This document shows, piece after piece, positions 37,741 to 41,929 of a stretch of DNA of 64,000 nt. A model generated the notes under the pieces. The model did no database searches. It saw only the letters and a program-made list of their open reading frames with translations, and was not told the DNA's origin. The position numbers were made by a program, and so were the translations under genes. The stretch is taken from NCBI GenBank assembly GCA_017621035.1, contig JAGATY010000029.1, positions 19,263-83,262 of the forward strand, read 5' to 3'. Position 1 is the first letter of the stretch; each line of letters begins with the position of its first letter. This DNA is from Bacteroides sp. (GTDB lineage: Bacteria; Bacteroidota; Bacteroidia; Bacteroidales; Bacteroidaceae).

Positions 37741-37839
37741 TTCCGAAGCGCCCTTTCTTCAATCTTTTCCCTGTCAGGATTCTTTATTTCTAGGTTGATA
37801 CTCTCATTTTCGAAATTCCCCCTTCAAAACGTCATTTTG

Positions 37840-37931
37840 TCTTCGTCCAACCAAGACACTGTCTTCGTCCAACCAAAAGGCCCTTTTCGTACAACGAAGA
37901 CACCCTTTTCGTACAACCAACAGAAAACTGC
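37840..37931. repeat. Tandem repeat array D, period exactly 22 bp
   Basis: Four units with CGTCCAACCAA or CGTACAAC cores at 37844, 37866, 37888 and 37910, exactly 22 apart. It lies between the M16 terminator and the promoter of the caspase operon. Confidence 0.8.
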
Positions 37932-38008: not shown

Positions 38009-38040
38009 GTTGCAAGTATCAACCTGTTTTCATACTTTTG
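38009..38040 (+). promoter_or_regulatory. Promoter of the LPP20-DUF4384-caspase operon
   Basis: GTTG (38009-38012), 20-base spacer, TACTTTTG (38033-38040). Transcription would start near 38047, which gives an unusually long leader of about 265 bases before the first ATG at 38313. Confidence 0.65.
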
Positions 38041-38113
38041 CCATCAGAATGAAGAAGCGTCTCCATTCAATACATAAGAGATTTATTAGTAAGAAGCGTA
38101 GTGCTTTATTCTT

Positions 38114-38312
38114 GTCGACGAAAACCTGAGAAACTTTCGATAGATACTCAAGAATGGCATTTTGCGGTTCTCGCGCTATATGGCGCGGGTCTGCTGTCCA
38201 TACAGAGTATCAGGTTTTCTCAGGACCTTCGTTGACGAATGGCACGCAGTTCCGCGCTTTCGTTTTTATAAAACCATCCTGAGGAACTGGGGATGAATAG
38301 GAGAAAACCTGA
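38114..38312 (+). promoter_or_regulatory. Structured 5' leader with alternative pairing over the ribosome-binding site (candidate riboswitch)
   Basis: Domain I is a long multi-stem arm: GTCGACGAA (38114-38122) with TTCGTTGAC (38228-38236), CCTGAGAAA (38125-38133) with TTTCTCAGG (38216-38224), GATACTC (38143-38149) with GAGTATC (38205-38211), and a tip hairpin CGCGC/GCGCG (38172-38187). Domain II pairs CAGTTCC (38247-38253) with GGAACTG (38283-38289). The strand TCAGGTTTTCTC (38210-38221) is also a perfect 12-base complement of GAGAAAACCTGA (38301-38312), which includes part of the AGGAG and abuts the ATG. The two pairings exclude each other. No known riboswitch class is recognised. The pairing is seen; switching is inferred. 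Confidence 0.6.
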
Positions 38313-38975
38313 ATGAAACGTTATCTATTACTGCTGGTAATGGCTGCAACTGTGGGAACAAGCGTTGCACAGACCGCTAAAGAAATGGCCGAGAAACGCA
38401 AAGAAGTAATGAGTATGTCGAAAGAAGAAATGAGTGCCAAAGCATCGAAGGCCGCTGAAGAAGAGGCTAAGAGGTATGAAAAAGAGGGCTGGAAAGTTGC
38501 CCCCGGTTCACTTCCACTGAAGGCACAACTGGACAAGTCGTATGCCATACAGCAACAATACGATGAGAACTTTGAATCAAAATTCGTTATGGGTCAAGCC
38601 ATCAGTGTAGGTTCTACCTACGATGCCGCCCGCATGCAAGCAGTTGAACTGGCCAAACAAGAGTTGGCGGGTATGATTGGAAGCGTCATCACAGCCCAGA
38701 CCGAAACAGCTATAGCCAACAAACAACTCTCTAACGAAGAGGCAGTTTCCATCACTCAAACCATCCAGAAGAGTCGGAACCAGGTTGCTCAACGCATCGG
38801 CAAGGTGATTGTTGCCGTTGAACTCTATCGCGACAATGAAGCAGGAAAGGAAGTGCTCGTGAGAATCGCCTACAACATGGACAATGCCAAGCGTATTGCC
38901 CTTGAAACCATGCGTGAGGAACTTACCAAGATGCTGGACAATCTGAACAAGAAACTGGAAGAGTTGATGCAATGA
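38313..38975 (+). CDS. Exported LPP20-like coiled-coil protein
   Basis: Periplasmic protein of 220 residues. Signal peptide MKRYLLLLVMAATVGTSVAQ, then a charged helical stretch (~21-65, KEMAEKRKEVMSMSKEEMSAKASKAAEEEAKRYEKEGW), then an LPP20/DUF-like alpha+beta region (GQAISVGSTYDAARMQAVELAKQELAGMIGSVI) and a second long helix at the C-terminus (LTKMLDNLNKKLEELMQ). No catalytic motif. Its stop overlaps the next gene in an ATGA junction. Together with the DUF4384 and caspase-fold proteins it forms a cell-envelope module. The function is unknown. Its translation may be set by the upstream leader. Confidence 0.85.
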   Translation: MKRYLLLLVMAATVGTSVAQTAKEMAEKRKEVMSMSKEEMSAKASKAAEEEAKRYEKEGWKVAPGSLPLKAQLDKSYAIQQQYDENFESKFVMGQAISVGSTYDAARMQAVELAKQELAGMIGSVITAQTETAIANKQLSNEEAVSITQTIQKSRNQVAQRIGKVIVAVELYRDNEAGKEVLVRIAYNMDNAKRIALETMREELTKMLDNLNKKLEELMQ

Positions 38976-39922
38976 TAACTGTGTCGGTCATGAATCTTTC
39001 GCCCCACTTCTTCCGACGGGCAACCACTCTCCTACTCTTTCTGCTGCCGCTTTCCTGCTTCAAAGGCAAGGTCTCTGCACAGGAAGTACGGGACATCTGT
39101 GGGCAATACACCTACTATGCTCCGGAGAACGTCACCCTGGAACAGGCACGTCGCACCGCTCTGCAACGTGCCAAGCTATCTGCTCTGGCCGATGAGTTTG
39201 GTACGCGCATCGCACAAAACAACGTTACCCGTGTGAAGAACGAAAACGGTCAGTCGGACATTTCCTTCCTCTCCTTGGGAGGGAGTGAGGTGAAAGGTGA
39301 GTGGTTGACAGATTCCGGTACGCCCCGATACGATATCAGCTACCAAGATAACACACTGATAGTTACCGCTTCGGTTTGCGGAACAGCACGCGAACTTGCC
39401 TCCTTGCAAGCCTGTTTCACGGCCTCTCTTTTAAGGGGAACGGCAGAAAATCCCATTGAAAGCAGCGACTTTAACGATGGAGAAAACCTCTTTCTTCGTT
39501 TTCAATCTCCCGAAAGTGGCTATCTGGCCGTCTACTTGGCCGATGCTTCAGGCAATGTTTACTGTTTGTTGCCCTATCGCCGATGCAAGCAGGGACGCTT
39601 CCCCATTCAGGCCAATCGGGAATATCTTCTCTTCTCCAAAACTTTTGCGACCGATGACGAGGAGCGGAAGTTGACCGATCAGTATCGGCTCTATACGGAG
39701 AAAGAGAGTGAAATAAACCATCTCTACATCATCTTCTCCCCACAATCATTCATCAAAGCCAACGACCATCACAATCGTAGCAAGCAACTTCGAGGAATGG
39801 AATTGCCACGAGAACTGTCGTTCAAACGCTTCCAAGAGTGGCTTACCCGCAACAAACTGGCCAATGACGGCCTACAAACCGAGATTAAAGACATAACCAT
39901 CAATAAGCATTCATGCCCATGA
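38972..39922 (+). CDS. DUF4384 domain exported protein
   Basis: 316 residues. The N-terminus has a hydrophobic export segment (LLLFLLPLSCFKGKVSAQ). Residues ~35-140 again resemble LPP20 (GQYTYYAPENVTLEQARRTALQRAKLSALADEFG), so the first two genes may share an ancient domain. Residues ~155-260 match the DUF4384 beta-sandwich (DGENLFLRFQSPESGYLAVYLADASGNVYCLLPY). DUF4384 proteins are often encoded with caspase-like or kinase proteins. It is linked by ATGA overlaps at both ends (38972-38975 and 39919-39922), so all three proteins are translationally coupled and probably made in fixed ratio. Confidence 0.85.
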   Translation: MITVSVMNLSPHFFRRATTLLLFLLPLSCFKGKVSAQEVRDICGQYTYYAPENVTLEQARRTALQRAKLSALADEFGTRIAQNNVTRVKNENGQSDISFLSLGGSEVKGEWLTDSGTPRYDISYQDNTLIVTASVCGTARELASLQACFTASLLRGTAENPIESSDFNDGENLFLRFQSPESGYLAVYLADASGNVYCLLPYRRCKQGRFPIQANREYLLFSKTFATDDEERKLTDQYRLYTEKESEINHLYIIFSPQSFIKANDHHNRSKQLRGMELPRELSFKRFQEWLTRNKLANDGLQTEIKDITINKHSCP

Positions 39923-41292
39923 AAAGAGAGTTACTTACCATCTTGCTCCTGCTGAGTTGCACTATCGGCCTGCAGGCGCAACGATTCTCCTACAGCTACA
40001 ATAGTGTCAACTTCAAGTGTAAGTTGAAGGACGGAACGGTCTGCATCACCGGTTTCGACCGTAATGTGGCAGACGTCATTGTTCCGGCCTTTGTTTCCTA
40101 TCGTGGCAAGAACTATCCGGTAGTTATGGTAGATACATACATCAGTGGCGATAACTACTCCACCATCACTCTGATGCTTGAAGAAGGAATCCGAGAAATT
40201 GCCAACTACTGCTTCATCGAGTTCAGAAAACTGCAAACCGTGGTACTGCCCAACAGCATCCAAGTAGTTGGCAAGAATGCCTTTGCAAAGGCGGAAGAGA
40301 TTAGCAACTTCCAGGTTTCGGAGCAAGTAGGCCAAATGATTTTTGGTCCGGAGTGGAGTGTAGATACCGCTTCCGGCCATTCACAAGCTGCTTTGGCAAC
40401 AGTCACCTCCCCGACTCCTCCGGAAGTAGAAAAACAAATCGCTCAGTCAAAGCACACCTTATATAATATAAATAAGGTGGAAGAGAGCGAGGAAGTGGAT
40501 GTCGACACCGACATACCCAAAGCCCGACGTGAGAACGAGTATAGCTTTGCAGTCATCATTGCCAATGAGAAGTACGATGTAGAGAGCCCTGTAGAGTTTG
40601 CCATCAACGATGGAAGAGTGTTTAAAGCATACTGTCAACAACTGTTCGGAATGCCGGAAGAAAACATCCGACTGCTGGAGAATGCTTCATATATGCAAAT
40701 CAAACGTACCATGGAGTGGCTCAAAAGAGTGACCAAAGCCTATGCCGGAGTTTGTAAAGTCTACCTCTATTATGCAGGCCACGGCATGCCGGATGAGAAA
40801 CAACGTACTGCTTACTTGCTACCAACCGACGGTTATGCTTCGGACATCACTGTCTCGGGGTACAGTCTGAAGGAGTTGTATGCCCTACTGGGAGCACTTC
40901 CAGCCGAGTCGGTGACAGTGTTTTTAGACGCTTGTTTCAGTGGCTTGAAACGAGATGGAGCTGCCATTCTTGCAGCAAGAAGTGTGGCAATAGAGCCTGA
41001 AGAGGAGGTTTTGTCGGGAAAGGTCATGGTCTTCTCTGCAACATCGGAGGCCGAAACAGCCTATGCCTACAAGCGGAAGGGACATGGAATGTTCACCTAT
41101 TTCCTGCTCAAAAAGCTGAAAGAGTCGCGCGGGAACATCACCTATGGAGAACTTTCGGACTACATTCGTACGGAAGTGATGCGTAAATCGCTCACACTTA
41201 ACGATAAGGAGCAAACACCCACCGTAAGCGTTGCTCCAACCTTGGAATCAACTTGGAAACATATCAACTTTAATATTAACCATAAAAAGTAA
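39919..41292 (+). CDS. Exported caspase-fold (C14) peptidase with N-terminal leucine-rich-repeat-like domain
   Basis: 457 residues. Signal peptide MKRELLTILLLLSCTIGLQAQ. Residues ~25-125 look like a BspA-type LRR_5 fragment (GIREIANYCFIEFRKLQTVVLPNSIQVVGKNAF). After a linker, residues ~205-440 form a caspase domain (YSFAVIIANEKYD...) with the catalytic dyad His288 in YYAGHGMP and Cys339 in FLDACFSG. Prokaryotic members (metacaspase/paracaspase-like) often cut after Arg or Lys. The export signal is notable, because most bacterial caspases act in the cytosol. ATG codons lie at 39913 and 39919; the latter is chosen because it makes an ATGA overlap identical to the previous junction. Confidence 0.9.
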   Translation: MKRELLTILLLLSCTIGLQAQRFSYSYNSVNFKCKLKDGTVCITGFDRNVADVIVPAFVSYRGKNYPVVMVDTYISGDNYSTITLMLEEGIREIANYCFIEFRKLQTVVLPNSIQVVGKNAFAKAEEISNFQVSEQVGQMIFGPEWSVDTASGHSQAALATVTSPTPPEVEKQIAQSKHTLYNINKVEESEEVDVDTDIPKARRENEYSFAVIIANEKYDVESPVEFAINDGRVFKAYCQQLFGMPEENIRLLENASYMQIKRTMEWLKRVTKAYAGVCKVYLYYAGHGMPDEKQRTAYLLPTDGYASDITVSGYSLKELYALLGALPAESVTVFLDACFSGLKRDGAAILAARSVAIEPEEEVLSGKVMVFSATSEAETAYAYKRKGHGMFTYFLLKKLKESRGNITYGELSDYIRTEVMRKSLTLNDKEQTPTVSVAPTLESTWKHINFNINHKK

Positions 41293-41297
41293 TTCGT

Positions 41298-41929
41298 ATG
41301 AAAAAGCTTAGTTTAGTTTTTGCACTATTATTGATGTGCATGTGTGCAACCGCACAAATCACTTGGAACGTAAAAGCCGGTGTAGGTATTGCAACTCTAT
41401 CAGGTCTTAACGACGAGGGAAGCAAGAAAATGAAGTTCGGATGGAAAGTCGGCGTTGGTATCGAGAAGCCTCTTGCTGCTAATTGGCTTATCATGCCGTC
41501 GCTCGAATTAAGCAGAAAGGCAGTGGTTGGGAGTCTAAATATAGTGAATACAGTTATGAAGATAACGTCACTCTTAATTACTTGCAACTACCCATCCTGG
41601 GTGCTTATCGCACAAGATTGAGTGATGAGTTCAATCTTACCCTAAAGGCCGGTCCATACTTTGCCTATGCTCTGTCCGGTGACGATGAGTGGAGTGACAG
41701 TGATGGAGACAGTGGAAGTATTGATATATTTAGTTCAGATTTTGAAGGTGAAGGTGTTGAAGCTTCACGTTTTGACTTTGGTTTAGCATTGGGAGCCGAT
41801 GTGGAGTACCATCGTTTTGTAGTGGGCGTTGAAGCTGAGTTCGGCTTTATTCCTTTCGTAAAGAATACAGAAGACAACATGAAGATTCGCAACATTTCAG
41901 CTTACATCACTGTAGGTTATAAGTTCTAA
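41298..41929 (+). pseudogene. Frameshifted outer-membrane beta-barrel (porin family) gene
   Basis: Two overlapping frames together make one protein of the OMP_b-brl_2/PorT-like class. The first gives the signal peptide MKKLSLVFALLLMCMCATAQ and ITWNVKAGVGIATL...PSLELSRK. The second resumes GSGWESKYSEYSYEDNVTLNYLQLPILGAYRTR and ends in a barrel strand (AYITVGYKF). The break lies at 41517-41521 (AGCAGAAAGGCAGT); one extra G would restore ...SRKGSGW. This is a single-base deletion or a sequencing error. The gene is 5 bases after the caspase gene and probably was the fourth member of that operon. Confidence 0.8.

What the first reader, a model, noticed from the sequence alone, without database searches (positions are those of the whole stretch)
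38047..38320. Candidate new translational riboswitch or thermosensor ahead of a periplasmic caspase operon
The leader is about 265 bases long, far beyond its neighbours. It holds two copies of GAAAACCTGA: E1 in the first stem (38120-38129) and E3 directly before the ATG (38303-38312). Between them, E2 (38210-38221) is a perfect 12-base complement of E3 and also pairs with E1 inside a nested arm (9 + 9 + 7 + 5 bp stems). E1:E2 leaves the AGGAG free; E2:E3 hides it. A second stem (38247-38253/38283-38289) sits between. A direct repeat competing for one complementary strand is classic switch logic, and I recognise no known class.
Basis: partly seen in the sequence, partly recalled or inferred. 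Interest (0 to 1): 0.82.

Follow-up and report, generated by a model that had tools for sequence, protein, structure and literature searches.

The report
Widespread unclassified Bacteroidia leader RNA
The long leader is one copy of a large folded RNA found across many Bacteroidia, sitting between promoter and start codon of unrelated genes, apparently an undescribed gene-control RNA.

Summary
The leader is real and is not a one-locus curiosity. Its 169-nt core (38091-38259) belongs to a structured RNA family with no match in Rfam 15. A covariance model finds it in 109 of 158 genomes of the genus, 124 of 393 drawn from the order (74 of 206 genera), and sparsely in other orders of the class. Covariation is strong (97.5% of cells paired; 36 of 49 pairs with double changes; 689 G.U against 46 A.C cells, so the sense RNA folds). 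Copies follow a TAnnTTTG box; 132 of 158 end within 75 nt of an ATG. The genes behind are unrelated (130 proteins, 60 clusters). Two further pairings covary: a pseudoknot to a hairpin loop before the ATG, and an early helix that should exclude the main rod. Best reading: a gene-independent cis-acting leader, probably controlling translation through the 3' pseudoknot; signal unknown. Near-identical cores precede unrelated genes, and 36 of 148 copies follow one putative mobilization gene family. No expression data were available.

The parts
38033..38040 (+). promoter -7 box TACTTTTG (TAnnTTTG)
   Evidence: TAnnTTT(G) found in 148 of 156 copies examined, 119 of the 148 at 48-53 nt before the core; that this is the Bacteroidota promoter box is recalled knowledge
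38047..38068 (+). 5' hairpin (GAATG/CATTC), first element of the expected transcript
   Evidence: fold; similar hairpins read by eye in other copies
38091..38259 (+). core RNA, 169 nt
   Evidence: cmsearch R1 136.2 bits; this copy was one of the 16 that built R1
38094..38099 (+). P1 5' strand AAGCGT, pairs with 38254-38259 GCGCTT
   Evidence: helix 1 of A4, 98.4% of cells paired
38103..38105 (+). P2 5' strand GCT, pairs with 38248-38250 AGT; shares that strand with the pseudoknot
   Evidence: helix 2 of A4, 97.7% paired
38108..38114 (+). A strand ATTCTTG, complementary to B (38149-38155)
   Evidence: A:B pairing: mean 6.02 nt own vs 5.40 +/- 0.08 permuted, maximum 5.60 in 500 permutations, 104 copies
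38116..38122 (+). P3 5' strand, pairs with 38228-38234
   Evidence: helix 3 of A4, 6 of 7 pairs with double changes
38125..38133 (+).
   Evidence: helix 4 of A4, 7 of 9 pairs with double changes
38143..38148 (+). P6 5' strand GATACT, pairs with 38206-38211
   Evidence: helix 6 of A4, 6 of 6 pairs with double changes
38149..38155 (+). B strand CAAGAAT, alternative partner of A
   Evidence: fold with A:B forced
38170..38189 (+). apical hairpin of the conserved GGTTCTC..GGG domain
   Evidence: helix 9 of A4, 99.7% paired
38216..38224 (+).
38247..38253 (+). CAGTTCC, pseudoknot strand at the core's 3' end, pairs with 38283-38289 GGAACTG
   Evidence: 34 of 58 variant copies keep 6 or more pairs into a hairpin loop, permuted mean 17.9 sd 3.0, 0 of 200 permutations reach it
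38275..38295 (+). 3' hairpin CATCC/GGATG whose loop carries GGAACTG
   Evidence: sequence; same arrangement read by eye in many copies
   Evidence: 1 of 131 copies
38313..38975 (+). first gene of the operon, 220 aa, no Pfam family
38972..39922 (+). second gene, DUF4384
39913..41292 (+). third gene, caspase (Peptidase_C14) with LRR_5

Best explanation
The leader is one copy of an undescribed family of large structured 5'-leader RNAs of the class Bacteroidia. SHOWN by computation: the core follows a promoter box at near-fixed distance, folds into a closed structure (P1, P2, a long rod P3-P6 and a conserved apical domain), in many copies ties its 3' end by a pseudoknot to a hairpin just before the start codon, has a second covarying pairing (A:B) that should not coexist with the rod, and mostly ends about 50-60 nt before the ATG of unrelated genes. 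INFERRED: it is cis-acting and controls how the ribosome reaches that ATG. The A:B hairpin can form first during transcription and is then replaced by the rod; whether the core closes (P1 + pseudoknot) or stays open (P2 or local hairpins instead) decides whether the region before the ATG is presented or blocked. The trigger (small molecule, protein, ribosome or folding time) is unknown; since the genes are unrelated it should be a general cellular signal, or the RNA is a constitutive expression or stability module. It is reused as a ready-made expression leader, in part by what looks like cargo of mobilizable elements.
For: Family: R1 hits in 109 of 158 genus genomes, 124 of 393 order genomes and 74 of 206 genera, and 24 of 395 in a phylum sample at E <= 1e-6, 21 of them from other orders of the class. 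Structure: 97.5% of 5031 cells paired vs 84.0% shuffled and 31.6-45.7% slid; 36 of 49 pairs with double changes. Sense strand: 689 G.U vs 46 A.C cells. Pseudoknot: 34 of 58 variant copies, 0 of 200 permutations reach it. A:B: 0 of 500. Position: of 158 copies 150 have a downstream sense ORF, 132 within 75 nt, 84 at 50-59 nt; matched control: 128 of 150 sense sides vs 8 of 153 antisense sides within 75 nt, 82 vs 0 at 50-59. Promoter box: 148 of 156. Unrelated genes: 60 blastp clusters of 130 proteins, none of the Pfam families shown (25 of 35) in more than 2 of 60 representatives. Reuse: 76 pairs of copies with cores 95% identical or more before unrelated genes.
Against: No RNA-seq, probing or reporter data; transcription is inferred from the promoter box. 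The pseudoknot is not universal: 60 of 156 copies score 5 nt or less, and the first, unrestricted statistic was weak. 18 of 150 copies have their first ORF more than 120 nt away and 8 of 158 have none. Permutation and shuffle tests do not remove relatedness, and A4 is fitted to the model. A four-copy tandem array without clear genes (L150) and a variant tail in 7 copies suggest that some copies act without a gene directly behind. In the window the pseudoknot strands are mostly claimed by other pairs in a fold without pseudoknots (probability 0.008).
Confidence: 0.6

Rival explanations
1. An orphan riboswitch in the strict sense: the core is an aptamer for a general metabolite or second messenger, and the 3' pseudoknot is its expression platform.
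For: Highly conserved unpaired and apical nucleotides, competing pairings around CAGTTCCACGCTT (P2, pseudoknot, junction hairpin), many unrelated genes as for second-messenger riboswitches (recalled analogy).
Confidence: 0.35
2. A constitutive expression module: the RNA recruits or positions the ribosome, or protects the mRNA, without sensing anything; it is reused because it works before any gene.
For: Gene independence and near-fixed spacing to the ATG, promoter included, reuse before unrelated genes.
Against: The conserved alternative helix A:B and the overlap of P2 with the pseudoknot suggest switching rather than a static fold.
Confidence: 0.25
3. A DNA-level recombination or cassette-joining site (integron attC-like) that happens to be transcribed.
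For: Near-identical cores with unrelated genes behind; in 79 of 100 such pairs (cores 94% or more) similarity stops 0-4 nt after the core; L107/L111 and L044/L175 stay similar for about 600 nt upstream but differ behind.
Against: 689 G.U vs 46 A.C cells argue for RNA; position is fixed to promoter and ATG; homologous recombination or gene conversion inside the shared block would also stop where homology ends; only 3 of 153 held loci carry more than one distinct copy (most stretches are short). Recombinase genes were not searched for.
Confidence: 0.12
4. One reading: E3 competes with E1 for E2 and hides the AGGAG, as riboswitch or thermosensor, in this copy.
For: 12-nt perfect complement, 3 of 20000 shuffles; the fold with E2:E3 forced also contains the conserved A:B helix.
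Against: 1 of 131 copies has it; 10.6 kcal/mol above the minimum, no effect of temperature from 25 to 45 C in the model.
Confidence: 0.07
5. A chance hairpin or mobile palindrome without function.
For: Palindromic enough for weak antisense model hits of about 21-43 bits.
Against: Covariation and positional conservation.
Confidence: 0.01

Closest known systems
Pseudoknotted translational riboswitches (SAM-II, preQ1-II; recalled)
   Same: Structured 5' leader with a pseudoknot next to the start of translation
   Different: Those are short and control one pathway (recalled); this is about 265 nt, has no known ligand and precedes unrelated genes; no Rfam match
Second-messenger riboswitches such as c-di-GMP (recalled)
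   Same: One RNA class ahead of many unrelated genes
   Different: No match to an Rfam family; ligand unknown
Metastable leader hairpins such as that of hok mRNA (recalled)
   Same: A conserved early hairpin (A:B) that would later be displaced
   Different: No antisense RNA or toxin theme seen; the later rod is closed into a core
Integron attC sites (recalled)
   Same: A folded element at a joint behind which unrelated genes are found
   Different: Folds as sense RNA and lies between promoter and ATG; integrases were not searched for
6S-Flavo, Flavo-1, Bacteroidales-1, Bacteroides-1 RNAs (in the motif table of PMC2864571, passages seen)
   Same: Structured RNAs of Bacteroidota
   Different: Those with an Rfam entry did not match in cmscan

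Membership tests
Any Rfam 15 family | score at or above the gathering threshold | tested here: not met
   Window: only two tRNAs; leader with permissive search, best E 4.2; 11 further loci, one match at E 0.66 away from the RNA
The family defined here (model R1) | full-length match to the covariance model | tested here: met
   136.2 bits, positions 1-169; circular in part, as this copy was one of the 16 that built R1
The family defined here (model R1) | promoter box before, ATG about 50-60 nt after, 3' pseudoknot | tested here: met
   38033-38040; ATG 53 nt after the core end; 38247-38253/38283-38289
Riboswitch | binds a ligand and changes expression | not testable with these tools
   needs probing and reporters
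Riboswitch | conserved aptamer plus expression platform with exclusive pairings | tested here: inconclusive
   P2, pseudoknot and junction hairpin share the CAGTTCCACGCTT strand; A:B excludes the rod by a geometric argument only
RNA thermosensor | start region opens with temperature | tested here: not met
   mean pairing around the ATG 0.64 at 25 C and 0.60 at 45 C in the fold model; a prediction, not an experiment
Retron ncRNA | reverse transcriptase beside it | tested here: inconclusive
   No reverse transcriptase among the 25 of 35 Pfam families shown for 60 downstream representatives; three PADLOC models with RT in their names match one member each and were not followed up
Integron attC | integrase, and sites at cassette ends | not tested
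   integrases not searched; 3 of 153 held loci carry more than one distinct copy

The most novel reading that the evidence does not exclude
A class-wide, gene-independent RNA module of Bacteroidia, fixed between promoter and start codon, that controls or drives translation in bacteria that mostly do not rely on Shine-Dalgarno pairing (recalled), and that mobile elements use as a plug-in expression leader for whatever cargo they carry; its pseudoknot and its competing early helix would form a switch answering one general cellular signal.
Probability: 0.4. Interest if true: 0.92.

Novelty: new variant of a known kind. Interest (0 to 1): 0.82.

Why it matters
If true, a common structured leader of a dominant gut phylum has been missed. 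It offers a handle on how Bacteroidota start translation, a candidate orphan riboswitch with hundreds of copies for ligand hunting, and an explanation of how newly acquired genes become expressed.

Tried and rejected
Rfam at gathering and permissive thresholds, on the window and on 11 better-scoring or distant loci: nothing at the RNA. E3 as a class feature: 1 of 131. Thermosensor: no temperature effect in the model. A common -33 promoter motif: only weak A/T-rich signals. A gene-function theme: none seen (25 families of 35 and of 45 shown for Pfam and NCBIfam). Intrinsic terminator after the core: 43 of 157 copies have TTTT within 16 nt and only 17 also a junction hairpin, so rejected as a general feature. 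A first pseudoknot statistic that searched the whole tail was weak (variants, own mean 5.14 against 4.72 crossed); replaced by one restricted to hairpin loops; the choice was made. A first table of pairs with shared upstream flanks (223 pairs, 15 called similar downstream) used a downstream score with implausible near-zero values; I do not use its counts. Identity of the upstream gene family: no match in NCBIfam, no Pfam match below 0.27, weak PHROGs matches to a coiled-coil-like stretch; the name 'mobilization protein' comes from public annotation of some homologues, others are 'hypothetical protein'. No solved relative.

Literature: searches (94 papers hold at least 5 of 6 terms, 25 listed; a 22-mer of the core, 0; 206, 15 listed; 0; 0; 4; 62, 12 listed): titles and abstract starts seen. 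Passages found by term of PMC9723704, PMC8040213, PMC2864571, PMC7366714, PMC11109978 and PMC10994844; none describes this RNA in what I saw. No preprints and few subscription papers are held, supplements could not be opened, and the paper of 2017 on 224 motifs was not held, so earlier description is not excluded.

Full report
OBSERVATION. A TAnnTTTG box at 38033-38040 puts the expected start a few bases downstream of it (inference). The window lies in an unnamed 2.6 Mb draft genome of 93 contigs.

A FAMILY. A blastn search of 60 relatives plus the own genome with the leader gave matches in 12 of 61 genomes, the own one included, all of one genus, some with two or three copies, in different gene surroundings. 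Sixteen copies were aligned (A2) and made into a covariance model R1 of 169 positions and 49 pairs. R1 found matches at E <= 0.001 in 109 of 158 genomes of the genus, up to 12 in one genome, and in 124 of 393 genomes drawn from the order, 74 of 206 genera; these searches use stricter filters that lose weak matches. In 395 genomes drawn from the phylum 24 had a match at E <= 1e-6: the own genome, one of the family, one of the order and 21 of other orders of the class. The own genome holds three clear copies and one weak one. Five viral contigs carry the pattern (R1 confirms all five). By blastn alone seven plasmid records (none covering 80% of the query) and one phage record have a match. Rfam has no match.

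STRUCTURE. On 104 matches from 98 loci chosen by hand out of 252, plus the window (A4), 97.5% of 5031 cells form standard pairs (84.0% in shuffles, 31.6-45.7% when partners are slid), 36 of 49 pairs have a double change, and none of 500 shuffles reaches any of the five measures. The alignment is fitted to the model, which favours it, and the shuffles do not remove relatedness. G.U cells number 689 and A.C cells 46, as expected if the sense RNA is the folded molecule. P4 is CCTGAGAAA:TTTCTCAGG, seen also as CCTAGGAAA:TTTCCTAGG and CTAGCAAA:TTTGCTAG. Two more pairings were found. First, CAGTTCC at the core's end pairs with the loop of a hairpin before the ATG, for example CAGTCTC:GAGATTG and CGGTTCC:GGAACCG, and in copies from other orders AACCC:GGGTT (by eye). 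Among 58 copies with a variant strand 34 keep six or more pairs into a hairpin loop, against 17.9 +/- 3.0 permuted, 0 of 200 reaching it; but 60 of all 156 copies score five or less. Second, an A strand before the rod pairs with a B strand above it: mean 6.02 nt against 5.40 +/- 0.08, maximum 5.60 in 500 permutations. A and B sit at opposite ends of a rod of about 25 pairs, so they should exclude it; that is a geometric argument, not a test.

POSITION. 193 hits reduce to 158 distinct copies; the set is biased by the exact-pattern scan. 150 have a sense ORF of 60 aa or more within 700 nt; 132 start it within 75 nt, 84 at 50-59 nt, and the other 18 lie beyond 120 nt. In a matched control 128 of 150 sense sides against 8 of 153 antisense sides have a start within 75 nt. 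The promoter box was found in 148 of 156 copies, in 119 of them 48-53 nt before the core. The 130 distinct proteins behind the 132 copies fall in 60 blastp clusters; 60 representatives hit 35 Pfam families, and none of the 25 shown is in more than two members. 92 of 130 have a hydrophobic N-terminal stretch by a crude rule. The window's first gene has 44 further matches in the genus search; the 29 of these held as loci hold no R1 match at E <= 0.01, so the RNA is not tied to that gene.

REUSE. Among 130 copies, 76 pairs have cores 95% or more identical before unrelated genes and 26 before related genes. In 100 pairs at 94% or more with unrelated genes, similarity ends 0-4 nt after the core in 79. 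Of 148 copies with an upstream ORF, 36 follow one protein family; in 31 of the 36 its stop, or that of another long frame, lies 83-133 nt before the core. Public records call some homologues 'mobilization protein', but no profile confirms it. In one group (L102, L139, L158) the genes behind the RNA end at a terminator-like repeat directly before a tRNA-Asp gene on the other strand, which looks like an element boundary; L175 shares the repeat but no tRNA was called there. Integration itself was not tested.

Forcing E2:E3 gives -83.3 against -93.9 kcal/mol; the forced fold also contains A:B. Only the window copy has a complement of 9 nt or more between the E2 strand and the 22-nt spacer (1 of 131). 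So E3 may refine this copy but does not define the system.

MECHANISM. Shown: a conserved, promoter-linked, start-codon-linked RNA with competing covarying pairings. Inferred: cis action on translation through the 3' pseudoknot; exchange of A:B for the rod during transcription. Not known: the signal, and whether there is one. Against: no expression data; a tandem array of four copies without clear genes; seven copies with another tail; no pseudoknot score in many copies.

NOVELTY. Within Rfam 15 and the papers searched (listed under Tried and rejected) I found no description. It is a new family of a known kind, structured leaders, with an unusual gene-independent use.

Noticed in passing
L150 (Rikenellaceae MAG contig) 409-1471: Four tandem copies of the RNA about 300 nt apart, each behind a promoter-like box and with no convincing gene between them.
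   Followed up: partly
L015, L019, L050, L061, L153, L170, L182 just after the core: A second kind of 3' tail (GAACC..GATACC..GTTCCC, about 85 nt; L015 begins GACCC) with no ATG near; perhaps a stand-alone or trans-acting form.
   Followed up: partly
36 copies, e.g. L182:2480-3883: A protein family, in some public records called mobilization protein, lies before the RNA; the genes behind vary, and in L102, L139 and L158 end at a terminator-like repeat and a tRNA-Asp gene.
   Followed up: partly
window 37820-37923: Repeats at 22-nt spacing (TTCGTCCAACCAAGACAC-like) between the M16 peptidase gene and the leader.
   Followed up: no
window 41298-41929: Two overlapping ORFs that look like one outer-membrane barrel protein interrupted by a frame change; real or an assembly fault. 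Described only.
   Followed up: no
L252 1501-1666: Weak fourth copy in the own genome (28.4 bits) ahead of an MmeI-like restriction-modification gene.
   Followed up: partly
L075 934-1452: One of the 60 representatives matches lincosamide nucleotidyltransferase models; by its sequence I take it to be the gene behind the L075 copy, which the call does not name. Described only.
   Followed up: no
junction after the core, many copies: Tails often begin CGTG (51 of 157), able to pair with CACG of the core end; junction stems of 4 or more in 49% of copies against 20% for shuffled tails.
   Followed up: partly
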